This document shows positions 44,795 to 58,620 of a stretch of DNA of 64,000 nucleotides, in pieces. Position 1 is the first letter of the stretch, and each line of letters begins with the position of its first letter. The notes beneath the pieces are model-generated. The model did not search any database. It worked only from the letters and a program-made list of their open reading frames with translations, and had not been told where the DNA came from. The stretch comes from Streptomyces sp. ASQP_92 (GTDB lineage Bacteria; Actinomycetota; Actinomycetes; Streptomycetales; Streptomycetaceae): assembly GCF_025399895.1 (NCBI RefSeq), contig NZ_JAODUA010000019.1, forward strand, positions 1-64,000, read 5' to 3'. The position numbers were made by a program, and so were the translations under genes.

Positions 44795-45763
44795 TCAGGC
44801 CGCCTTCGAGAGGGCTCCCGGGATGATGGCGCGGGGGCCGAACTTGGCCCGGGCCCGGTCGGCCACCTCCTCGATGCGGCGGGCCCGCTCGTCCTCGGGG
44901 GCGAACGTCAGCTGGTGCGCCGCGTGTTCGGCCGCCATGAGCCCCTCGGCGCGCAGGGAGATGCCGCGCACCCTGGCCCGTTGCAGGCCGAGGGCCGAGT
45001 GGAGGGCGTAGCCGAGCTCGGCCAGCGCGGGCGAGTGGGCCGAGGGCTCGCGCAGGGTGCGGGTGCGGGTGGTGGTGGACCGGTCGGCGTAGCGCACGGT
45101 GAGGGCGAGGGAGCGGCACACCTGGTCGGCGCCGCGCAGCCGGACGCCCAGTTCCTCCGCGAGGGAGAGCAGCGCCCGGCGCTGGCGTACCGGGTCCAAC
45201 TCGTCGCGGGGGAAGGACCGTTCGGCCGCGAGCGAGCGTGCGGAGGCGTTCGGCACGACGGGGGTGCGGTCGATGCCGCGGGCGCGCTCCTGGAGGTCGC
45301 GGCCCTGCCGGGCGCCGAGGATCCGCTGGACGGTGCCGGGCGGGGCCGCGGCGAGGCGGCCCGCCGTGTCGAGGCCGTACGCGCAGAGGGTGCGGGCGGT
45401 CGAGCGGCCGACACCGTCCAGGGCGCGGACCGGCTGCGTGGCGAGGTAGCGGTCCACCTCGTCGGGGCGCACCGTGCGGGTCGTGCCGGGACCGGCGTCC
45501 CGGGCGGCCATCCTGGCCAGCATCGGGTTGGGCGCGAGTCCGATCGCGCAGTCCAGGCCGAGGTGGGCGAGCGCGCGGACCCGCAGGACGGCGGCGAGCT
45601 GTCCGGCGTCCTGCCCGAAGTACTTCTCGGCGCCCGCGAGGTCGGCGAGGAGGCCCTCGGGGGGCAGGGCCTGGACGACCGGGGTGAGGCCCTCGGCGAG
45701 GGCGACCAGCGCGGGAAGCGCCGCTCCCGTGTCGTCGAGGACGAAGCGTGCACAGAGGATCAT
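44795..45763 (-). CDS. Truncated, catalytically degenerate Y-family polymerase (ImuB-like)
   Basis: A 322-residue protein coupled to dnaE2 by an ATGA overlap. It aligns with the second half of the DinB palm and with the fingers, thumb and little-finger regions. The first palm strand with the metal-binding Asp is missing, and the conserved SIDEAFLD block is replaced by PPEGLLAD. HhH-type GVGRSTARTLCAYGLDTAGRL and RGIDRTPVVP are intact. HQLTFAPED near the C-terminus resembles a beta-clamp-binding motif. In other actinobacteria a dead Y-family protein, ImuB, guides DnaE2 in mutagenic translesion synthesis, and this gene probably plays that part, though it is shorter and no imuA is adjacent. Confidence 0.82.
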   Translation of the reverse strand: MILCARFVLDDTGAALPALVALAEGLTPVVQALPPEGLLADLAGAEKYFGQDAGQLAAVLRVRALAHLGLDCAIGLAPNPMLARMAARDAGPGTTRTVRPDEVDRYLATQPVRALDGVGRSTARTLCAYGLDTAGRLAAAPPGTVQRILGARQGRDLQERARGIDRTPVVPNASARSLAAERSFPRDELDPVRQRRALLSLAEELGVRLRGADQVCRSLALTVRYADRSTTTRTRTLREPSAHSPALAELGYALHSALGLQRARVRGISLRAEGLMAAEHAAHQLTFAPEDERARRIEEVADRARAKFGPRAIIPGALSKAA

Positions 45764-48700
45764 CCGGCGCTCCCCGGGCTCGAATGCCACAACTTCCGCC
45801 CGGTGGCAGCTCCTTCGCCCGCCGGGCGCAGATCGGCCCAGGGGTTCAGTTCGTAGCCGGTGGACAGGTGGATGCGGCGGCCGTGGTCGGCGGCGGGGCC
45901 GGGCGGAGTGGCGGGCGGGGTGTCGGTTCCGGGTCCGGCCGGGGTGTCCGCCCGTGGTCCGGGCGCGGTGCCGGCGGTGGGGGCGGGTGGTTCGGGCGGG
46001 GCCGCGAGGCGGGACGAGACGGCGTCCAGGCCGCCCTCGCGGCGCAGTTCGGCGAGTTCGGCCAGGTTCCAGGCGCGGGCGCCCACCACGCTGAGGCTGC
46101 GCGGGCCGCGCCGCTGCACCACGCCCCGCACGAGGAGCAGCCAGGAGTGGAAGACGGTGTAGGCGCAGGCGTCGTGGCTGTCGTCGAAGAAGGCCAGGTC
46201 GACCAGGCCCGTGCCGTCGTCCAGGGTGCTGAAGACGACCCGCCTGCCGGAGCGGATGGGCGGGGTCTGGGTGGCCGCCTTGGCGCCCGCGACCAGGACG
46301 GTCTGTCCGTGCTCGGCCTCGCGCAGCCGCTTGGCGGAGAGGACGCCGAGCTCGTTCAGGAACGCCGTGTGATCCTCCATCAGATGGCGGGAGGTGTCCA
46401 TGCCGAGCACGCCGAGCTCGGCGCTGAGCCGCTCCGCCCCGTCCAGGTCGGGCAGCCCCGCACCGGCCGTCAACTGGCCTCCGTCCAGCGGGAGTTGACC
46501 GCCGGGTGCGCGGCGGGCGCCGTGGAGTTCGGACAGGTGGAGCAGCAGGTCGCGCCGGTTGGCGCCGAACGCGTCGAGCGCGCCGATCCGGGCGAGCCGT
46601 TCGGCGACCGGCCGGCTCGGCCTGGCCCGCTGCCAGAAGTCGCGCAGCGAGGCGTAGGGGCGGCCCGCCTCGATGCGCGCGCTCTCGGCCTCGCTGATGC
46701 CGTGGACGTCACAGAGGGCGAGCCGCACCCCCCAGGTACCGGACACCAGTTCGATTGTGTGGGCGACCGAGGACCGGTTCACATCCACCGGCAGGATCGG
46801 CACCCCGCGCCGCCGCGCGTCCGCGAGCAGCAGGCGCTTGGGGTACATCCCGGGGTCATGGGTGAGCAGCCCGGCGTAGAAGGCGGCCGGGTGGTGCGCC
46901 TTGAGCCAGGCCGACTGGTAGGTCGGCACCGCGAACGCGACGGCGTGCGCCTTGCAGAAGCCGTACGACCCGAAGGCCTCGATGATCTCCCAGGTGCGGG
47001 CGATCACCTCGGGCGTGTAGCCGCGCTCCTCGGCACGCTGGGCGAACCAGACCTTGATGCCCGCCTGCGACTCCCGGTCGGAGAGCCCGCGCCGCACCCG
47101 GTCGGCCTCGCCCCGGCCGCAGCCGGTCATGATGTTCACCATCTCGATGATCTGCTCGTGGAAGACGACCACCCCGTAGGTGTCGCGCAGCGCGTCCGCC
47201 AGGTCGGGGTGCGGGAAGTGGACCGGGGCCCGGCCGTGCCGCGCCTCGATGAACGGGCGCACCATGTCGGCCGCGACCGGCCCGGGGCGGAACAGGGAGA
47301 TGTCGACGACGAGGTCGTGGAAGGTGGACGGCTGGAGCCGGCCGACCAGGTCGCGCTGGCCGGGCGACTCGATCTGGAAGCAGCCCAACGTCTCGGTGGA
47401 CTGGATGAGTTGGTACGTCTTCCGGTCGCCCGGCGGGACCTGTGCCGGGTCGTCGATGTCGAGTTCCTCGCCGGTGGCCCGGCCGATCTCGGCGACCGCG
47501 TGGGCCATCGCGGACTGCATCCGGACCCCGAGCACGTCCAGCTTGAGCAGGCCGAGGTCCTCCACGTCCTCCTTGTCGAACTGGGACATGGGGAAGGGGG
47601 CACCCCCCTGGCCCTTGAGGCCCAGGGGGACCTCCCCCCTGGTGGGCATCACGGGCGTACGCCGCAGCAGCGAGGCGTCCGAGAGCAGCACGCCGCACGG
47701 GTGCATGGCGATGCCGCGCGGCAGGGCGTCCAGGGCTTCGACGAGCTCCCAGAGTTTGCCGTACTTCTCCATCTCCCCTGCCAGGTACCGCAGTTCGGGC
47801 AGTTCCTTCAGGGCGGTGCGGGCGTCGCGGGCCCGGATGTGCGGGAAGGACTTGGCGATCTTGTCGATCACCGCCGGGTCCATGGACAGGGCCGCGCCCA
47901 CGTCCCGGACGGCGTGCCGCACCCGGTAGGTCTCGGGCATGGCCACGGCGGCCACCCGCTGGGTGCCGAAGCGGTCGATGATCGCGCGGTAGACGTCGAG
48001 CCGGCGGGCGGACTCCACGTCGATGTCGATGTCGGGCAGCACCGGCCGCCGGGTGGACAGGAAGCGCTCCATCAGGAGCCCGCTCTCCACCGGGTCGGCG
48101 TGGGCGATGCCGAGCAGGTGGTTGACGAGCGAGCCCGCGCCGGAGCCGCGCGCGGCCACCCGGATGCCCATCTCCCGTACGTCGTCGACGACTTGGGCGA
48201 CGGTGAGGAAGTACGAGGCGTACCCCCAGTGCGCGATGATGTCCAGCTCGTGGTGCATCCGCTCCCAGTACGCGCGCCGCCCCTCGTATCCGCGCAACAC
48301 CATCCCGGCCGCGGCCCGGGAGGCGAGGACCCGCTGGGGGGTGCGGTCGGCCGCGCCGACCAGATGCGGTTCGGGGAAGTGGGCGAAGGTCTTGATGCCG
48401 AGGTCGTCCTGGGGGTCGACGAGGCATTCGGCGGCGGTCTCCTCGGTCATGGCGAGGAGCCGGTGGGCGACGTCGCGCCGCCAGCCGGCCGCTTCGGCGA
48501 CCCTTTCGGCGATCTTGAACATGGCGTCCGGCCCCTTGAGCCAGCGCTCCCCGCTGTCGAACGGCGGCCGCACCGGCACCAGGCGCCGTGCCGCGTCCAG
48601 CACATCGGCGACCGGTCCCTGGCCGGGGTCGGCGTAGCGGGCGGCGTTGGTCAGGACGGCGCGTACGCCCTGTTCGGCGGCGAGGCCGACGGTGCGCGCG

Positions 48701-49296
48701 GCGAGCCGCAGCGAGCCGGGTCCCGTCCCCGTGAGCCCGTGGTGGACGGCTTCGAGGCGGAGCGCGTCGCCGTAGAGCTCCCGCCAGGGCGCGAGCAGTT
48801 TCGCGGCCCGGTCGGGACGGCCCGCGCTCAGCGCGCGGCCGACCTCGGAGGCGGGGCCGAGCAGCACGGTGAGCCCCTGGGCGGGCAGGTCGGCGGGGGC
48901 GAGCAGGGGGCGGCCCCCGGCGGTGTGCGCGGCGCTGACCAGGCGGCAGAGCTCGGCCCAGCCGGCCGCGCCGTCACGGGCGAGGAAGGTGACCCGGGGG
49001 GCGGATTCGTCGACGAAGGCGCCGCCGCGCACGGGCGTGCGCCGGGCCTGGCCCCGGGCGGGACCGGGGTCCCCCAGGTGTTCCGCCACCGCGAGTTCGG
49101 CTCCGAACAGCGGCCGGATGCCCGCCTTGGCGCAGGCCTTGGCGAAGCGGACCGTGCCCGCGAGGGTGTCCCGGTCGGTCAGCGCGAGGGCGTCCATGCC
49201 GCGTTCGACGGCACGTTCGGCCAGCCGCTCCGGGTGGGAGGCTCCGTACCGCAGGGAGAACCCGGACACGGTGTGCAGATGCGTGAAGCCGGTCAT
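45760..49296 (-). CDS. dnaE2: Error-prone DNA polymerase III alpha subunit DnaE2
   Basis: A 1178-residue C-family polymerase. ATG at 49296 (MTGFTHLHTVSGFSL) is chosen because AGGAGGT lies four bases upstream. The PHP domain starts THLHTVSGFS with LTDRDTLAG. The polymerase triad Asp residues lie in LPDIDIDVESARRLD (about residues 421-426), with SGAGSLVNHLLGI nearby. Segment PMSQFDKEDVEDLGLLKLDV is typical of DnaE2. An OB-fold and a Pro-rich spacer lie at the C-terminus, ending before HLSTGYELNPWADLR. A roughly 15-residue insertion (GEVPLGLKGQGG, about residues 552-567) is encoded by a palindromic element. Role: SOS-induced mutagenic lesion bypass together with the overlapping Y-family gene. 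Confidence 0.94.
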   Translation of the reverse strand: MTGFTHLHTVSGFSLRYGASHPERLAERAVERGMDALALTDRDTLAGTVRFAKACAKAGIRPLFGAELAVAEHLGDPGPARGQARRTPVRGGAFVDESAPRVTFLARDGAAGWAELCRLVSAAHTAGGRPLLAPADLPAQGLTVLLGPASEVGRALSAGRPDRAAKLLAPWRELYGDALRLEAVHHGLTGTGPGSLRLAARTVGLAAEQGVRAVLTNAARYADPGQGPVADVLDAARRLVPVRPPFDSGERWLKGPDAMFKIAERVAEAAGWRRDVAHRLLAMTEETAAECLVDPQDDLGIKTFAHFPEPHLVGAADRTPQRVLASRAAAGMVLRGYEGRRAYWERMHHELDIIAHWGYASYFLTVAQVVDDVREMGIRVAARGSGAGSLVNHLLGIAHADPVESGLLMERFLSTRRPVLPDIDIDVESARRLDVYRAIIDRFGTQRVAAVAMPETYRVRHAVRDVGAALSMDPAVIDKIAKSFPHIRARDARTALKELPELRYLAGEMEKYGKLWELVEALDALPRGIAMHPCGVLLSDASLLRRTPVMPTRGEVPLGLKGQGGAPFPMSQFDKEDVEDLGLLKLDVLGVRMQSAMAHAVAEIGRATGEELDIDDPAQVPPGDRKTYQLIQSTETLGCFQIESPGQRDLVGRLQPSTFHDLVVDISLFRPGPVAADMVRPFIEARHGRAPVHFPHPDLADALRDTYGVVVFHEQIIEMVNIMTGCGRGEADRVRRGLSDRESQAGIKVWFAQRAEERGYTPEVIARTWEIIEAFGSYGFCKAHAVAFAVPTYQSAWLKAHHPAAFYAGLLTHDPGMYPKRLLLADARRRGVPILPVDVNRSSVAHTIELVSGTWGVRLALCDVHGISEAESARIEAGRPYASLRDFWQRARPSRPVAERLARIGALDAFGANRRDLLLHLSELHGARRAPGGQLPLDGGQLTAGAGLPDLDGAERLSAELGVLGMDTSRHLMEDHTAFLNELGVLSAKRLREAEHGQTVLVAGAKAATQTPPIRSGRRVVFSTLDDGTGLVDLAFFDDSHDACAYTVFHSWLLLVRGVVQRRGPRSLSVVGARAWNLAELAELRREGGLDAVSSRLAAPPEPPAPTAGTAPGPRADTPAGPGTDTPPATPPGPAADHGRRIHLSTGYELNPWADLRPAGEGAATGRKLWHSSPGSAG
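47590..47643. repeat. Palindromic element inserted in frame within dnaE2
   Basis: The run contains CCCCCTGG (47604-47611 region) facing CCAGGGGG (47622-47629 region), with outer G-rich and C-rich arms (AAGGGGG and CCTCCCCCC). It translates to about 15 extra residues between RTPVMPTR and FPMSQFDK, where DnaE2 proteins usually run straight from a short loop into FPMSQ. It looks like a Streptomyces REP-like palindrome captured without breaking the frame. Confidence 0.55.
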
Positions 49297-49351
49297 CCGC
49301 ACCTCCTACCGATCCGTTCTCACCTCCCCCTCCCTTCCACCATAGACCAGT

Positions 49352-52405: not shown

Positions 52406-52517
52406 CACGGCCCCCAAGGGTCCGAATCGGACGTGTACCTCGACGGTAACTCCGTGGCTGCCCCAAAGGGAGACCCCGGGAGACCCCGTACGCGGCCCCC
52501 GCTCGCACCGTCCTCCG

Positions 52518-53309
52518 TCAGCGCCGTTCCCGCGCCATCCAGGCGGCCGCGTGCTCGACGGCCACACCGATCGGGAAGAGCAGCGCGTCACGGCTTCCCA
52601 GCGGGCCGCCGCGCAGGTGCTCGGCGGGGAACGCGGCGCCGATGCGGGCGAAGTCGCTGTCGTCGAGCGCGGCGTCCCGGTACTCGAACCAGGTGACCGC
52701 GCCGCTCTCGTCCCTGATCACCGCGCGATAGGTGCGGCTGGGAGCCGGGAGCAGGTACTCGGCGTGGTGGAAGGCGGAGCACACCGCGAAGCCCACGTTG
52801 ACGAGGAGGACCTGGGCGTCGGCCGCGAGCAGTTTGGCCAGGGGGGACTCCGCGCCGAAGTGGCAGTCGAGCGCGTGGCCCTTCATCAGCTCGGCGGCCC
52901 GGGCCCCGAGCGCCGCGAAGGAGGTCTGCGGATGGTCGCTGCGGACGGCCCCCGGGCTGGTCCTGACCCGCGCCGCCAGGCGTCCCGTCCCCGGCGACGG
53001 GGTGTGGTCGGGGTCGAAGGGCGGCATCGCGGCCCGGAAGGCGACCGGGTCGGGGGCCTGGCGCAGCAGGGCCAGATGGGCCGGGGAGGTGTCGGAGTTC
53101 TCGGGCGTGAACGCGGGGACCACCAGCGTCCCCTCCGGCCCGAGCACCGTGCGCAGCGCGTCCAGGAGCACGGCGCTGCGCAGCCCGGTGCCGCGCAGCG
53201 AGGCGTGTACCAGGAGGATCCCGCCCTCCCGCACCCCGAGGGCGCGCAGCTGGCCGGCCACATCCCCCTCGGGGTGTTCCCCCGGGTGCTCAGCGGTGTT
53301 CTCGGGCAC
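52518..53309 (-). CDS. AAC(3)-family N-acetyltransferase coupled to fxsB
   Basis: A 263-residue member of the aminoglycoside 3-N-acetyltransferase fold (not GNAT). Motifs include GILLVHASLRGTG, GTLVVPAFTPENSD and SDHPQTSFAALGARA, which holds the conserved His, with HHAEYLLPAPSRTYRA near the C-terminus. The GTG at 53309 gives MPENTAEHPGEHPEG and lies 20 bases inside the end of the radical-SAM maturase gene, so translation is coupled. Aminoglycoside resistance is possible, but the coupling suggests instead a job on the RiPP product, such as acetylating an amine. The order precursor, maturase, acetyltransferase fits a tailoring enzyme. Confidence 0.83.
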   Translation of the reverse strand: MPENTAEHPGEHPEGDVAGQLRALGVREGGILLVHASLRGTGLRSAVLLDALRTVLGPEGTLVVPAFTPENSDTSPAHLALLRQAPDPVAFRAAMPPFDPDHTPSPGTGRLAARVRTSPGAVRSDHPQTSFAALGARAAELMKGHALDCHFGAESPLAKLLAADAQVLLVNVGFAVCSAFHHAEYLLPAPSRTYRAVIRDESGAVTWFEYRDAALDDSDFARIGAAFPAEHLRGGPLGSRDALLFPIGVAVEHAAAWMARERR

Positions 53310-55482
53310 GCGATACCTCTTTCCACTCCTGGCGCACCATCCGCACCAGACTCTTTCCGGCGAGGGTGAGTTCGGCCGCCGACTCCAGGGCGTCCAGCGC
53401 GGAGCCGAGCTCCGCCGGGGTCGGCGCGTCGCCGCCGTACGCGGCGACCGCGACCGCTTCATAGGTCTCGGCGAGCAGCCGGGAGACCGGGAGCGGCCCC
53501 CACGGCGACGGATGCCGCCAGGCGCCGTCCATGTCGTACAGGTCCTCGACGTCCAGGAGGGCGCGCAGCTCCGCCCGGCGCCCCCCGCGCAGCAGGGCGA
53601 CGGCGAGCGGGCCGTCCGCGAGGTCGAGGGGCAGCCCGAGGGCACCGGGGCCGTGGCGTCCCACCTCGGGCCCCTCAGCCCCGGCGAGCGGTGTCAGCGT
53701 GGTGAGCAGCCCGGCCGGGGCGTAGTGCGGAACGCTCCGGGCCAGCCGTGCGCGGGCCCGTGCCACCCGGCGCCCCCACTCCCCCGCCGCGCGCGGCCCG
53801 AGCGGGGGCCGCACGGGGCTTTCGAAGCAGTCGCGGTACGGGTCGAGGTCGTCCAGGACCATGCCGTCGATCCGGGTCAACGGCCGCCAATACGGGCCGG
53901 GTTGGGCGGGGCGGCCGATGTGGTGCTCGGCCCCGGCGTGCCGGACCGTGAAGCCGTGGTCCGCGACGGTGACCTCGGCCACGCCCCGGGGGGCGGGGAC
54001 GGGCGGGCGGAGTTCGCCCAGGGTCGGCAGGTGGAGCCGGCCGCCGGTCCACGGCACGGGGAGGGTGAGTTCCGCGCCGTCGTGCACGGCCGCGGCGACC
54101 GTGTACGCGGCGAGGCGATGGGCCGTCGTCACCGCGTCGGGGCGCGCCCCCTCCAGCGCCTCCAGCGTCGCGAGCAGCCAGCGGCGGGCGTATGGATCGG
54201 CGAGGACCCGGTCAAGGCCCGGGCCGTCGAGGCGGGTGGCGAGCTCCCAGGCCCGCGCCCATCGCGCCCCGCCCCGCCCGTCGAGCGCCGTGTGCAGCCG
54301 GGCGAGCAGCGAACGGTTCAACTCGAGCCCCGCGTCGGCCAGTTGAGCCGCGTCGGGCAGCTCGGGTATCGGTGTGCGGGCCTCGATGCCGCGCACCAGG
54401 GCGAGCAGGTCGGGGCAGTACACCGACGGGTTGTCGAAGCCCTGCTCGGCGTCGTAGCGGTGGGTGTAGTGGCCGCCGCCGCAGGATCGGACGACCGGGC
54501 AGCGGCGGCACCGGTCGCCGACGCCGGGCAGACCGCGCTGGCGGGCGCGTACGCCGGGGTGGGCGGCGACCGCGTCGAAGTCGTCCCGGAACACGGAGAA
54601 TCCGGTGGCGGCGGCACCTTCGTAGGCCGACTTCAGGGAGTCGACCTGTTCCAGGGAGCCGTCGGTCTCCACCACGACGATGTCGGCGGGGGCCAGGCCC
54701 AGGGACTCGGTGAGGCTCGGACCTCCCCGCAGGGTCGAGAGCACCGAGTCGAAGAGCCGCACCGGGATGGTGCGGCCCTGCCGGTCCCAGCGGTCGAAGA
54801 CGGCGAGCAGCCAGTCGGCGTACGGGCTCGCCGCGCCGCCGGGCCGCTTCGGCGGGCTCTCCCACGTGGCGTGCGGCAGCAGGTAGTCGATGCGGGGCGG
54901 GTCGAGTGCCACCAGTGCGTCGTGCACGGCGAGCGGGTCGTTGGCGATGTCGACGGTGCAGAGCAGACCGAGGAACAGCGGGCGGTAGCGCGGCTGTTGG
55001 AGCAGGGCCACGGCGGCAAGCACCTGGGGATGGCTGCTGCGGCCGTCGGCGTAGCGCCGGTGGCGGTCGTTGGCGGCGCGGTCGCCGTCGAGCGAGATGC
55101 CGACCTTCACCCCGAACTCCTCGAACAGGTCGAGGAAGCGCGGGGCGAGGAGCACCCCGTTGGTGTGGATGCGCAGATCGAGCCGGGCGACGGGGGTGAC
55201 GGTGGCGGTCAGCTCCTCGCAGACGCGGCGCAGCCGCCCCGGCCCGGCGAGCAGGGGTTCACCGCCGTGCAGAATCACCGAAACGGAGGGGATCCGGTGT
55301 TTTTCGGCGTGCTCGGCAAGTCGTCGGGCGGTCTCGGTAATGACCTGTTCGGAGACGGTTCGGGGCCGACCGCGCCAGCTCTGGTCTGCGGCTTCGTACA
55401 CATAACAGTGATCGCAGGCAAGATCGCATCTGCTGTGCACTTTCAGAACGATCTCGCGGAATGGGACCAGGGGTCCTGTCAT
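53290..55482 (-). CDS. fxsB: FxsB-type radical SAM/SPASM peptide maturase
   Basis: A 730-residue enzyme. The radical-SAM cluster Cys19, Cys23 and Cys26 lie in SRCDLACDHCYVYE; HGGEPLLAG and ISLDGDRAAND follow. A SPASM-type auxiliary cluster region has Cys325, Cys328, Cys334 and Cys356. This architecture with FxSxx-COOH precursors is the FxsB group, now described as cyclophane-forming. Residues about 380-730 resemble the HExxH RiPP-associated domain, but the expected HExxH is RGGRR (632-636, in LLRGGRRAELRALLD), so that domain is probably metal-free. The ATG appears leaderless, with TAAACT as -10 inside a small dyad. Downstream it overlaps the AAC(3)-like gene. Confidence 0.87.
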   Translation of the reverse strand: MTGPLVPFREIVLKVHSRCDLACDHCYVYEAADQSWRGRPRTVSEQVITETARRLAEHAEKHRIPSVSVILHGGEPLLAGPGRLRRVCEELTATVTPVARLDLRIHTNGVLLAPRFLDLFEEFGVKVGISLDGDRAANDRHRRYADGRSSHPQVLAAVALLQQPRYRPLFLGLLCTVDIANDPLAVHDALVALDPPRIDYLLPHATWESPPKRPGGAASPYADWLLAVFDRWDRQGRTIPVRLFDSVLSTLRGGPSLTESLGLAPADIVVVETDGSLEQVDSLKSAYEGAAATGFSVFRDDFDAVAAHPGVRARQRGLPGVGDRCRRCPVVRSCGGGHYTHRYDAEQGFDNPSVYCPDLLALVRGIEARTPIPELPDAAQLADAGLELNRSLLARLHTALDGRGGARWARAWELATRLDGPGLDRVLADPYARRWLLATLEALEGARPDAVTTAHRLAAYTVAAAVHDGAELTLPVPWTGGRLHLPTLGELRPPVPAPRGVAEVTVADHGFTVRHAGAEHHIGRPAQPGPYWRPLTRIDGMVLDDLDPYRDCFESPVRPPLGPRAAGEWGRRVARARARLARSVPHYAPAGLLTTLTPLAGAEGPEVGRHGPGALGLPLDLADGPLAVALLRGGRRAELRALLDVEDLYDMDGAWRHPSPWGPLPVSRLLAETYEAVAVAAYGGDAPTPAELGSALDALESAAELTLAGKSLVRMVRQEWKEVSRAREHR

Positions 55483-55621: not shown

Positions 55622-55798
55622 TCAGAGCGCTGAGCTGAAGGTGGACACCGCCGATGGCCGGTGGCCGTCCGGGCTGCGCAGCACCCTGTCGAGCGCTTTG
55701 TCGGCGACCTGGCCGGCGTCCCGTGAGGCCAGTTCGGCCAGGGGGACCCGGTTCTTCTTCGCGGCGGTGAATGAGGCTGTGTTTACGGAGGTTTTCAC
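55622..55798 (-). CDS. FxSxx-COOH RiPP precursor peptide
   Basis: A 58-residue peptide from GTG 55798 with AGGGA seven bases upstream. It reads MKTSVNTASFTAAKKNRVPL at the start, then an acidic-basic amphipathic leader (AELASRDAGQVADKALDRVL), and ends SAVSTFSSAL, so Phe54 and Ser56 satisfy the C-terminal FxSxx rule exactly (F-S-S-A-L). Immediately downstream on the same strand is the FxsB-type radical-SAM maturase, which should modify this core. The mature product, its export and activity are unknown; no protease or exporter gene is adjacent. Confidence 0.85.
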   Translation of the reverse strand: MKTSVNTASFTAAKKNRVPLAELASRDAGQVADKALDRVLRSPDGHRPSAVSTFSSAL

Positions 55799-55944
55799 GT
55801 TCGTCCCTGGGGTGAGTGATAACCGCGCGTGGACAGTGGCACCGGCACATGCACCGTTGCAGTGTCGGCAGGACGACTTTACCCTCATCCCCACCGGCGT
55901 AAGGAGTGCGCAAAGGGAGCGCACAACTGCCGCATGGTGCAGGG

Positions 55945-56901
55945 ATGAAAGCAAAACCGCAGACGGGGGTGCATGTGACGGCGATTCCCGGCCCATTGCA
56001 GAGCATGGTCTTCCGGAACGCGGATCTGCCGGGCCTCTTCCACCACGCGGACGCGCTGGCGATCGGCCGGCAGCAGTCGGCGCTCAAGCTGACCCGGATC
56101 CAGCTCTCCCTTCTCGTCGTCGGCGCGGTCGCGGCGGCCCTGCCGGAGGTGCGTCTGAGCGGGGACTTCCAGGTGCTCAGCGCGCTGAGTGCGCTCGCGT
56201 ACGCCGGAGTGCTGCTCGCCGGCTTCGGGGCGGCCCGTCGCCATGCCGCCTCGCACTGGCAACTGAACCGCTCCGCAGCCGAGTTCATCAAGTCGATGTG
56301 CTGGCGCTATGCCGTGCACGGGGCCCCCTTCGACCTCAACGCCCCCGATCCGGACGCCCTGTTCGTGGCCCGGGTCGAGGAGGGGCTGCGCGAGCTGAAG
56401 AAGGTGGGCTGGCGCGACCCGCGGGACGAGGGGGAGCTCGCCTCCGGGGGCCTGGTGACGCCCGGCATGCGGGAGTTACGGGGCAAGTCGTTCACCGTAC
56501 GCAAGGAGACCTATGTGCGGGACCGGCTCATCGAGCAGCGCAACTGGTACCGGCGCCGCCAGGAGACCTCACGGCGCGCCACCCGGCTGTGGTCGACGGC
56601 GATCACGCTGCTCACCCTGCTCGCCCTTGTCTTCGCCACCCTCCAGACCTTCTCGGTGGCGCGGAGGGTGGACATGGCGGGCCTGCTCTCGGCCGCTGCC
56701 GCGGCCTGTCTCGCCTGGAGCGAGATCCGCCGTCACCAGCCGCTGATATCGGCGCACTCGCTGGTGGAGCAGGACCTGATGGAGATGCATGTGGCCATGG
56801 AGAACATGGTGACCGAACGGCAGTGGCCGCAGGCCGTGTACGAGACCGAGCGCATCGTCTCGCCCCAGCACACCGACTGGCTTGCGCGGCTGCGCAGTTG
56901 A
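55945..56901 (+). CDS. SLATT (DUF4231) membrane protein
   Basis: A 318-residue protein with a tandem arrangement: helices at about 52-68 and 74-95, a cytoplasmic region (FNDL-like residues 105-210, including AAEFIKSMCWRYAVHGAPFD), then helices at about 216-238 and 243-259 and a charged tail. This is the DUF4231/SLATT pattern; SLATT proteins are predicted pore-forming effectors in nucleotide-sensing conflict systems. The start is uncertain: ATG 55945 is listed, GTG 55975 with GGGGG upstream is possible. Codon 178 is TTA (56476-56478), suggesting bldA-dependent translation. It diverges from the FxSxx precursor and is convergent with a SLOG gene. Confidence 0.82.
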   Translation: MKAKPQTGVHVTAIPGPLQSMVFRNADLPGLFHHADALAIGRQQSALKLTRIQLSLLVVGAVAAALPEVRLSGDFQVLSALSALAYAGVLLAGFGAARRHAASHWQLNRSAAEFIKSMCWRYAVHGAPFDLNAPDPDALFVARVEEGLRELKKVGWRDPRDEGELASGGLVTPGMRELRGKSFTVRKETYVRDRLIEQRNWYRRRQETSRRATRLWSTAITLLTLLALVFATLQTFSVARRVDMAGLLSAAAAACLAWSEIRRHQPLISAHSLVEQDLMEMHVAMENMVTERQWPQAVYETERIVSPQHTDWLARLRS

Positions 56902-57050
56902 GGCGCGGGACAGGTACGCGGGCGGAGGTATGGCGCGGGACAAGTGCGCGGGCGGAGGTATGGCGCGGGACAGGTACGCGGCCGGAGGTGTGGCGCGGGA
57001 CAAGTGCGCGGCCGGTGGTGTGGCGCGGGACGTGTGCGTGGTCGCCGAGG
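56902..57050 (+). repeat. 30-bp minisatellite, five units
   Basis: Units of GGCGCGGGACAGGTACGCGG-type sequence plus GCGGAGGTAT repeat with a 30-base period, starting directly after the SLATT stop codon. Units 1 and 3 carry CAGGTACGCG, units 2 and 4 CAAGTGCGCG, so a 60-bp doublet was duplicated; unit 5 is diverged. In one frame each unit encodes MARD(R/K)(Y/C)A(G/A)GG and contains GGAGGT followed by ATG or GTG. It separates the SLATT and SLOG genes. Confidence 0.85.
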
Positions 57051-57714: not shown

Positions 57715-58620
57715 TCAGAACAGGGTCACGCCATAGGCGTTCATGGCCTCGACCACGGGCTGGAAGAACGTCGTACCGCCGGAGGAGCAGTTGCCGCTGC
57801 CGCCCGAGGTGAGCCCGAGCGCGGTGGAGCCGGCGTAGAGCGGACCGCCGGAGTCGCCGGGTTCGGCGCACACGGTGGTCCTGATGAGGCCGGAGACGAC
57901 GTCGCCGCTGCCGTAGTTGACCGTCTGGTTGAGCGCGGTGACCTTGCCGCTGTGGATGCCGGTGGTCGAGCCGCGCCGGGTGACGGTCTGGCCGACCGTC
58001 GGGTTGGCGGCGCTGGTGATGGGCTGGCTGCCGACGGCGCTGGGGTGCGCGAGCGAGGTGTTGGTGTACTGCACGAGGCCGTAGTCGTTGCCCGGGAAGC
58101 TGGTGCCGACCGTCGGGCCGATGCTCGTCGAGTGCGAGGAGCTGGTGTAGTAGTTCGGGTAGCCCTCGGTGCAGTGACCCGCCGTCAGGAAGTAGTAGGT
58201 GGAGCCCTTCCTGACGTTGAAGCCGAGGGAGCAGCGCCAGCTCGTGGTGTAGATGGCGTCGCCGCCGGAGAGCAGCTTGGTGAACTTGCCCGGGGTGCGC
58301 TCGACGCGTATCGCGCCCGCGTTGGCCCCGGCCTCGTGTCTGATCTTGGCGAGGTCGGCGGCCGAGACGGTCGAGTCGGCGGTGACGACGACCTTGCCGG
58401 TCGCGCTGTCCACGCCCCAGGCGGTGCCGGCGACGTCCGCGACGCGCACGGCGTCACTGGCGGCGTTGAGCGCCGCCGCGTCGAAGGTGCGCGTCGGGGT
58501 GGCGTTGGCGTTGGGGATGGCGATGGCCACGGCGGCGAGCAGACCGGTGGCGACGGCCGCGAGCCTGGTGCGTCTCGCGAGAGTGGTGGGGGATGTGGGG
58601 GTGGTGCGCTTGATCCTCAC
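57715..58620 (-). CDS. Secreted streptogrisin/alpha-lytic-type serine protease (S1)
   Basis: A 301-residue preproprotease. GTG start with GGGAGG eleven bases upstream. Signal peptide about residues 1-41, then an alpha-lytic-type propeptide ([20 protein letters not shown]). The mature domain begins near [14 protein letters not shown]. The triad is His in [10 protein letters not shown], Asp in GNDYGLVQY, Ser in [14 protein letters not shown]; the two cysteine pairs expected in streptogrisins are present. It probably degrades extracellular proteins. Confidence 0.94.

What the first reader, a model, noticed from the sequence alone, without database searches (positions are those of the whole stretch)
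55622..55798. Short FxSxx-COOH precursor gene easily missed by annotation
A 58-codon GTG-started gene with an AGGGA ribosome site encodes a leader and the exact C-terminal F-S-S-A-L. It lies upstream of an FxsB-type maturase on the same strand. Known cyclophane-forming enzymes would crosslink Phe54 to Ser56. It appears inside a longer frame and could be overlooked.
Basis: partly seen in the sequence, partly recalled or inferred. Interest (0 to 1): 0.75.

Follow-up and report, generated by a model that had tools for sequence, protein, structure and literature searches.

The report
Cyclophane peptide gene in immune-like locus
A very short, easily missed gene for a peptide that is probably stapled into a small ring is real, and in Streptomyces it is repeatedly kept beside two genes of a kind predicted to act on membranes in bacterial immunity, which suggests the peptide belongs to an immune-like system rather than being an ordinary antibiotic.

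Summary
Confirmed: window 55622-55798, minus strand, is a 58-codon GTG gene ending F-S-S-A-L, with AGGGA in front, upstream of an FxsB maturase. It just reaches the TIGR04268 cut-off (28.0 vs 28 bits); the 124-aa frame around it does not (23.9). The best 80 FxsB loci of a genome scan all carry such a gene, with F and S invariant; two have stops just before the aligned GTG. The maturase is the FxsBH form whose hydroxylase-like domain lost HExxH. In 199 genomes of the window's genus, 50 of 64 FxsBH hits have this SLATT within 12 kb, in differing flanks and gene orders, though not always. Of the 80 relatives 72 also carry fxsC and the FxSxx TPR/NTPase; the window strain lost both by a deletion, keeping one other complete Fxs locus elsewhere. 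Best reading: a Phe54-Ser56 cyclophane peptide serving a SLATT/SLOG-armed variant of the known FxSxx-COOH conflict system. Chemistry and function are inferred, and this copy may be decaying.

The parts
55622..55798 (-). fxsA: 58-aa FxSxx-COOH precursor, ending ...TFSSAL-COOH
   Evidence: TIGR04268 28.0 bits; 80 of 80 relatives; start codon fixed by upstream stops in L047 and L053
55804..55808 (-). AGGGA ribosome-binding site, 5 nt before the GTG (AGGACG in 7 of the 13 loci shown, AGGGACG in 5)
53290..55482 (-). fxsBH: 730-aa radical SAM/SPASM cyclophane maturase with a C-terminal hydroxylase-like domain lacking HExxH
   Evidence: TIGR04269 578.2 bits (cut-off 370) and NF040587 344.2 (cut-off 225); fold of the C-terminal domain matches SjiH and the ChlB HExxH domain
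52518..53309 (-). AAC(3)-family (Antibiotic_NAT) acyltransferase; GTG start overlapping the end of fxsBH by 20 nt (start inferred)
   Evidence: PF02522 218.9 bits; closest solved FrbF 3sma; start region
55906..56901 (+). SLATT_3+SLATT_1 fusion protein, divergent from fxsA (ORF as listed; an in-frame ATG lies at 55945)
   Evidence: PF18184 131.4 and PF18181 130.4 bits
57064..57543 (-). SLOG-superfamily protein (YpsA/DprA-like fold), convergent with the SLATT gene
   Evidence: AlphaFold2 pLDDT 91.7, Foldseek YpsA 2nx2 E 1.1e-8, TM 0.78
55851..55882 (-). conserved 32-bp block between fxsA and the SLATT gene, presumed regulatory
   Evidence: at most 2 mismatches in 25 of 80 loci (pattern derived from such loci, two spacings); single match in the window, none in 100 shuffles
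52495..52534 (.). deletion junction relative to L039: fxsC, the FxSxx TPR/NTPase gene and a hydrolase-like gene are missing here
   Evidence: blastn against L039; tblastn; own-genome searches

Best explanation
The gene is a real fxsA. Its product is bound through its leader by FxsBH, whose radical SAM/SPASM domain joins Phe54 to Ser56 (three-residue cyclophane, loss of 2 H); the C-terminal domain keeps the hydroxylase fold but not its metal site and presumably only holds the peptide. The AAC(3)-type enzyme, encoded in overlap with FxsBH, probably acylates an amine of the matured peptide or a partner molecule. The peptide works inside the cell in a SLATT/SLOG-armed variant of the FxSxx-COOH conflict system: in relatives the FxsC/TPR-NTPase pair senses, and the SLATT protein, with SLOG as nucleotide-ligand partner, is the membrane-permeabilising arm. 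In this strain FxsC and the NTPase are gone from the locus, so the peptide either uses the FxsC/NTPase of the second Fxs locus or works with SLATT/SLOG alone. Shown: genes, families, folds, linkage, deletion. Inferred: cross-link, acylation, pore function, sensing.
For: Family scores. 81 of 81 peptides keep F at -5 and S at -3. fxsBH has pairwise dN/dS 0.28-0.39 and SLOG 0.12-0.46 among the window and L039-L042. In 199 genomes of the genus FxsBH and this SLATT co-occur in 53, FxsBH alone in 9, SLATT alone in 4, neither in 133; 50 of 64 FxsBH hits have SLATT within 12 kb and 52 of 58 SLATT hits have FxsB or FxsBH within 12 kb. Eleven loci picked because SLATT and FxsBH lie together (L141-L151) share no close match to the window's outer neighbours, yet also have AAC3 in 11 of 11 and SLOG in 10 of 11; L154 keeps SLOG, SLATT, AAC3, fxsA and fxsB in another order with a short FxsB. 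SLOG fold. 72 of 80 loci have fxsC and the TPR/NTPase, 70 of 80 these plus SLATT and SLOG.
Against: No expression or mass data. SLATT/SLOG occur without FxsB in L152, L156 and L157; FxsBH without SLATT in 9 of 96 HExxH-lost proteins and in three more, so the link is not obligate. Genomes are not independent; most loci belong to one clade of the FxsB tree, and SLATT needs 8 changes over 70 rows. SLATT and AAC3 show no significant association on independent tree pairs. The window copy lacks FxsC and the NTPase. fxsA pairs give dN/dS 0.37-1.41 on 56-61 codons: only the ends are clearly constrained. PADLOC has no model hit for SLATT, SLOG or FxsA.
Confidence: 0.7

Rival explanations
1. fxsA is genuine but the locus is a decaying remnant in this strain: after loss of fxsC and the NTPase the peptide and enzyme no longer do anything.
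For: Loss of fxsC, NTPase and a hydrolase-like gene at one junction; relative L042, which groups with L041 rather than with the window in the tree, lacks fxsC, NTPase and AAC3; fxsA changes fast.
Against: The frames of fxsA, fxsBH, AAC3, SLATT and SLOG are open; fxsBH of the window shows dN/dS 0.33-0.39 against L039-L042; core motif and ribosome site are kept; one other FxsC and NTPase exist in the genome.
Confidence: 0.25
2. SLATT/SLOG and the Fxs genes are neighbours by inherited gene order only and have no joint function.
For: Most cases form one clade of the FxsB tree; SLATT/SLOG sit beside the window's own flank genes without FxsB in L156 and L157; 0 of 19 usable other FxsB loci fetched have this SLATT.
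Against: The set persists with other flanks in L141-L151 and in another order with a short FxsB in L154; L153 has SLATT, fxsA and a short fxsB.
Confidence: 0.2
3. The peptide is an exported antibiotic or signal (an ordinary triceptide), and the neighbours protect the producer.
For: Related enzymes make cyclophane peptides of natural-product type (PMC11002830 passages); AAC(3)-like enzymes can be self-protection (recalled). An ABC-transporter-like ATPase frame lies about 6-7 kb beyond SLATT in L039 and L042 (by eye).
Against: No transporter recognised by eye within the recurrent set (no transporter-specific search was run); recurrent partners are TIR-like, NTPase, SLATT and SLOG proteins; a published analysis counts FxSxx peptide systems among conflict systems (PMC7159879 section 24).
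Confidence: 0.08
4. Chance open frame, not a gene.
For: Short, and exactly at the model cut-off.
Against: 80 of 80 relatives; background 10 of 17,720.
Confidence: 0.01

Closest known systems
FxSxx-COOH system (FxsA TIGR04268, FxsB TIGR04269, FxsC TIGR04276/NF040588, FxSxx_TPR NF040586)
   Same: fxsA and fxsB in order; FxsC and TPR/NTPase in 72 of 80 relatives
   Different: Window lacks FxsC and TPR/NTPase; SLATT, SLOG and AAC(3)-type genes attached
FxsBH, inactivated beta-hydroxylase form (NF040587)
   Same: 344.2 bits, HExxH absent
   Different: The model describes one protein; its printed description says nothing of SLATT/SLOG
ChlB, fused radical SAM and alphaKG-HExxH enzyme
   Same: Closest solved radical SAM domain 9gm3; its HExxH domain 8s5f is among the fold matches
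   Different: The catalytic HExxH is lost here
Stand-alone FxSxx peptide-processing systems with AP-ATPase (eLife 2020, PMC7159879)
   Same: FxSxx peptide, radical SAM-SPASM, MinD/ParA-like AP-ATPase with TPRs (section 24 read)
   Different: The passages I saw on SLATT and on FxSxx do not connect the two, and AAC does not occur as a word start in the main text
Triceptides made by MscB
   Same: Phe-x-Ser motif; reported C4(Phe)-Cbeta(Ser) link (passages of PMC11002830)
   Different: Product here not observed

Membership tests
FxSxx-COOH precursor (TIGR04268) | model score at or above 28 bits | tested here: met
   28.0 for the 58-aa form, at the cut-off; 23.9 for the 124-aa frame; 26.3 six-frame
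FxSxx-COOH precursor (TIGR04268) | C-terminal F-x-S-x-x before the stop | tested here: met
   FSSAL; 81 of 81
FxSxx-COOH precursor (TIGR04268) | Phe-Ser cyclophane in the product | not testable with these tools
   needs mass spectrometry
FxsB maturase (TIGR04269) | model score above 370 bits | tested here: met
   578.2; CxxxCxxC (motif recalled) visible as CDLACDHC
FxsBH inactivated form (NF040587) | score above 225 bits and no HExxH | tested here: met
   344.2 bits; no HExxH
FxSxx-COOH conflict system | FxsC and FxSxx_TPR encoded in the locus | tested here: not met
   absent from the window; own genome has one match to each, at another locus; both present in 72 of 80 relatives
SLATT | Pfam SLATT_3 and SLATT_1 above 26.3 bits | tested here: met
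   131.4 and 130.4
SLOG superfamily | SLOG (YpsA/DprA/LOG) fold | tested here: met
   predicted fold matches YpsA E 1.1e-8, DprA, ShosA, LOG; no sequence-model hit at the thresholds used
AAC(3) resistance enzyme (NF033082) | score above 270 bits | tested here: not met
   140.5; belongs to the wider PF02522 family
Known anti-phage defence system (PADLOC-DB 2.0.0) | model hits for locus proteins | tested here: not met
   none for SLATT, SLOG, FxsA, AAC3 or FxsC; pVip 33 bits on the radical SAM core and PDC-M28B 74 bits on the NTPase of L039

The most novel reading that the evidence does not exclude
A radical-SAM-made cyclophane peptide is a working part (ligand, gate or antidote) of a SLATT/SLOG membrane-pore immunity module in Streptomyces, with an AAC(3)-type enzyme tuning it; in the window strain it runs without FxsC and the NTPase.
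Probability: 0.25. Interest if true: 0.8.

Novelty: new variant of a known kind. Interest (0 to 1): 0.5.

Why it matters
To my knowledge the function of FxSxx cyclophane peptides is unknown. A recurrent link to a predicted membrane pore (SLATT) and a nucleotide-type partner (SLOG) gives a direct genetic test of what such a peptide does in the cell. The case also shows how a short RiPP precursor can fall on either side of an annotation cut-off by choice of start codon.

Tried and rejected
Chance ORF: rejected. Longer ATG start: rejected, because L047 and L053 have stops just upstream of the aligned GTG and the family score drops. Trypsin-like gene 57715-58620 as a part: tblastn hits in 65 of 80 loci but none with L141-L151, so taken as a local neighbour; Band7, glyoxalase and YhgE-like neighbours likewise. 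AAC(3) acting on a core lysine: only 5 of 81 peptides have Lys in the last 15 residues (4 of 33 with AAC3, 1 of 48 without). AAC3 and SLATT on independent tree pairs: no significant association. Sigma-70 promoter scan of the fxsA-SLATT gap found nothing. SLATT dN/dS involving the window used a wrong frame and is not used. A class-wide SLATT search (394 genomes) gave hits of 44% identity or more only in the window's genus and 27-35% in eight genomes of other genera; those eight loci were not examined. The neighbours upstream of fxsA in eight loci (seven without this SLATT) were looked at by eye only.

Dropped rows and selections: L177 (stop in frame) left out of the tree; L060, L070, L091 and L109 left out and L047 shortened in alignment A2. 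The FxsBH list is my selection from the printed, truncated table (matches reaching past about residue 640, plus two partial matches at 74-75% identity, G168 and G074); only 13 other FxsB rows were typed as the short set. L141-L151 were fetched because SLATT and FxsBH lie together there. The tree used 70 rows: 26 of the 81 window and genome-scan loci, and the 44 usable later loci. The genome scan kept 80 of 338 confirmed stretches.

Full report
Observation. The minus-strand frame 55798-55622 translates to VKTSVNTASFTAAKKNRVPLAELASRDAGQVADKALDRVLRSPDGHRPSAVSTFSSAL-stop. It scores 28.0 bits against TIGR04268, whose cut-off is 28; the 124-aa ATG frame around it scores 23.9 and a six-frame search gives 26.3. 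One scan of public genome contigs with the maturase confirmed 338 stretches and kept the best 80, all titled Streptomyces. In 80 of 80 a frame ending F-x-S-x-x lies upstream of fxsB. Over the window and these 80, endings are FNSAL 52, FSSAL 15, FNSSL 8 and six singletons; in the same sequences 10 of 17,720 other stop-to-stop frames of 35 or more codons end that way. F at -5 and S at -3 are invariant in 81 of 81. The GTG start is fixed by comparison: L047 has TGA and L053 has TAA in frame just before AGGACG and the aligned GTG.

Maturase. The 730-aa product of 55482-53290 scores 578.2 bits with FxsB TIGR04269 and 344.2 with NF040587, the FxsBH form with an inactivated hydroxylase extension. Its closest solved relative by sequence is the ChlB radical SAM domain, 9gm3. 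A model of the C-terminal 360 residues (pLDDT 93.0) matches SjiH (22ob, E 5e-17) and the ChlB HExxH domain (8s5f, best E 1.2e-5). Of 101 complete FxsB proteins of at least 500 residues, 96 lack HExxH and 87 of these have SLATT in the fetched stretch; four have HEFQH at the aligned site (L118, L158, L161, L170), none with SLATT; one further HExxH (L113, with SLATT) lies elsewhere in a protein whose similarity ends early. Of 20 FxsB loci fetched later, 19 were usable and 0 of 19 have this SLATT; six of them have a C-terminal extension, three scored as HExxH-positive by a looser pattern.

Neighbourhood. An AAC(3)-family acyltransferase frame (PF02522 218.9 bits; below the AAC(3) resistance cut-off, 140.5 vs 270; closest solved FrbF) begins 20 nt before the end of fxsBH if its GTG is used. 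Divergent from fxsA is a SLATT_3-SLATT_1 fusion, convergent with a 159-aa protein without a sequence-model hit at the thresholds used but whose model (pLDDT 91.7) matches YpsA at E 1.1e-8, then DprA, ShosA and LOG: a SLOG protein.

Is the neighbourhood meaningful? Within the 80 loci SLATT and SLOG are each found in 76, AAC3 in 32. In 199 genomes of the genus my tabulation gives FxsBH in 62, SLATT in 57, both in 53, neither in 133 (Fisher p 8e-34, which ignores shared ancestry). 50 of 64 FxsBH hits have SLATT within 12 kb; L167 has a SLATT fragment that one search did not report. Of 58 SLATT hits 52 have FxsB or FxsBH within 12 kb. L141-L151 were picked because SLATT and FxsBH lie together; they share none of the window's outer neighbours as close matches (only weak DnaE2 34% and MFS 27% hits), yet have AAC3 in 11 of 11 and SLOG in 10 of 11 (the exception, L150, has SLOG about 11 kb away in the same genome). 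A frame ending F-x-S-x-x was found by pattern upstream of fxsB in 9 of these 11 (not in L147 and L150). L154 has SLOG, SLATT, AAC3, fxsA, short fxsB, fxsC and NTPase, with AAC3 before fxsA; L153 has SLATT, fxsA, short fxsB, fxsC and NTPase. In one group an inversion-like change puts SLATT about 6.3-6.6 kb downstream of fxsBH, still linked. Against: L152, L156 and L157 have SLATT and SLOG without FxsB; FxsBH without SLATT is seen in L158-L161, L163-L166 and L170 among the later loci and L088, L112 and L118 among the 80 (L107 and L169 are at contig ends). On the FxsB tree SLATT changes state at least 8 times over 70 rows. I conclude that the link is real but not obligate.

What is missing here. 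In relatives L039 and L041 an FxsC-like and a TPR/NTPase frame follow AAC3; in L039 they score as FxsC (TIGR04276 199.9 bits; NF040588 189.2) and FxSxx_TPR (NF040586 1021.1). Of the 80 loci 72 have both, 70 of them with SLATT and SLOG; five of the other eight are loci on short contigs (L049, L072, L107, L115, L116). NF040586 is over cut-off in 96 of 101 genomes of the genus somewhere. The window has neither gene: 52301-52494 matches L039 before the Band7 gene and 52535-52587 matches the end of L039's AAC3. The own genome holds one match to each, at G000:C2 66.3-71.5 kb, beside an fxsA ending AFQSAL and an FxsBH with HEFQH. L042 lacks the same genes and AAC3.

Regulation. A 32-bp block between fxsA and SLATT (55851-55882) is kept with at most 2 mismatches in 25 of 80 loci, in L156, which lacks FxsB, and in L168; the pattern was derived from such loci. 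Best matches in L141-L154 have 10 or more mismatches. A consensus promoter scan of the gap found nothing.

Mechanism. Shown: genes, families, folds, linkage, deletion. From the literature: MscB links C4 of Phe to Cbeta of Ser (passages of PMC11002830; that MscB is an FxsB-type enzyme is recalled from its InterPro number); [quoted passage not shown] Inferred: that the window peptide is cross-linked, that AAC3 acylates it or a partner, and that SLATT/SLOG are its effector arm.

Print status. Ten full-text searches of the held open-licence library showed no title or abstract start that links FxSxx to SLATT/SLOG or AAC(3). Several lists were capped (25 of 1,201, 20 of 40, 15 of 41), and I read passages of three papers only. 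PMC7159879 is the only listed paper with both SLATT and FxSxx; the passages and section I read do not link them (main text; figures and source data not seen). PMC12734244, a fungal study listed with FxSxx-COOH, was not read. Haft and Basu 2011, Burroughs 2015 and Morishita 2024 were looked up by DOI (the first two DOIs recalled) and are not held, so prior description there cannot be excluded.

Noticed in passing
window 56902-57038: A 30-bp tandem repeat, 4.6 copies, lies between the SLATT and SLOG genes.
   Followed up: partly
window 55851-55882: Conserved 32-bp block in the fxsA-SLATT gap, also present beside SLATT in L156 where FxsB is absent.
   Followed up: partly
G000:C2:63639-71539 (L161): Second, complete Fxs locus in the same genome with an HEFQH-bearing FxsBH, FxsC and TPR/NTPase; its fxsA ends AFQSAL.
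   Followed up: partly
L042 8001-11207: Relative in which AAC3, fxsC and NTPase are all missing and Band7 follows fxsBH directly.
   Followed up: no
L039 16284-17177 (-): A hydrolase-like gene (named by eye, untested) convergent with the NTPase gene recurs beside Fxs loci with other flanks, for example L141-L148, L150 and L151.
   Followed up: partly
window 44795-49302 (-): A Y-family-polymerase-like gene beside a DnaE-type polymerase gene, resembling a mutasome pair; judged by eye, not tested.
   Followed up: no
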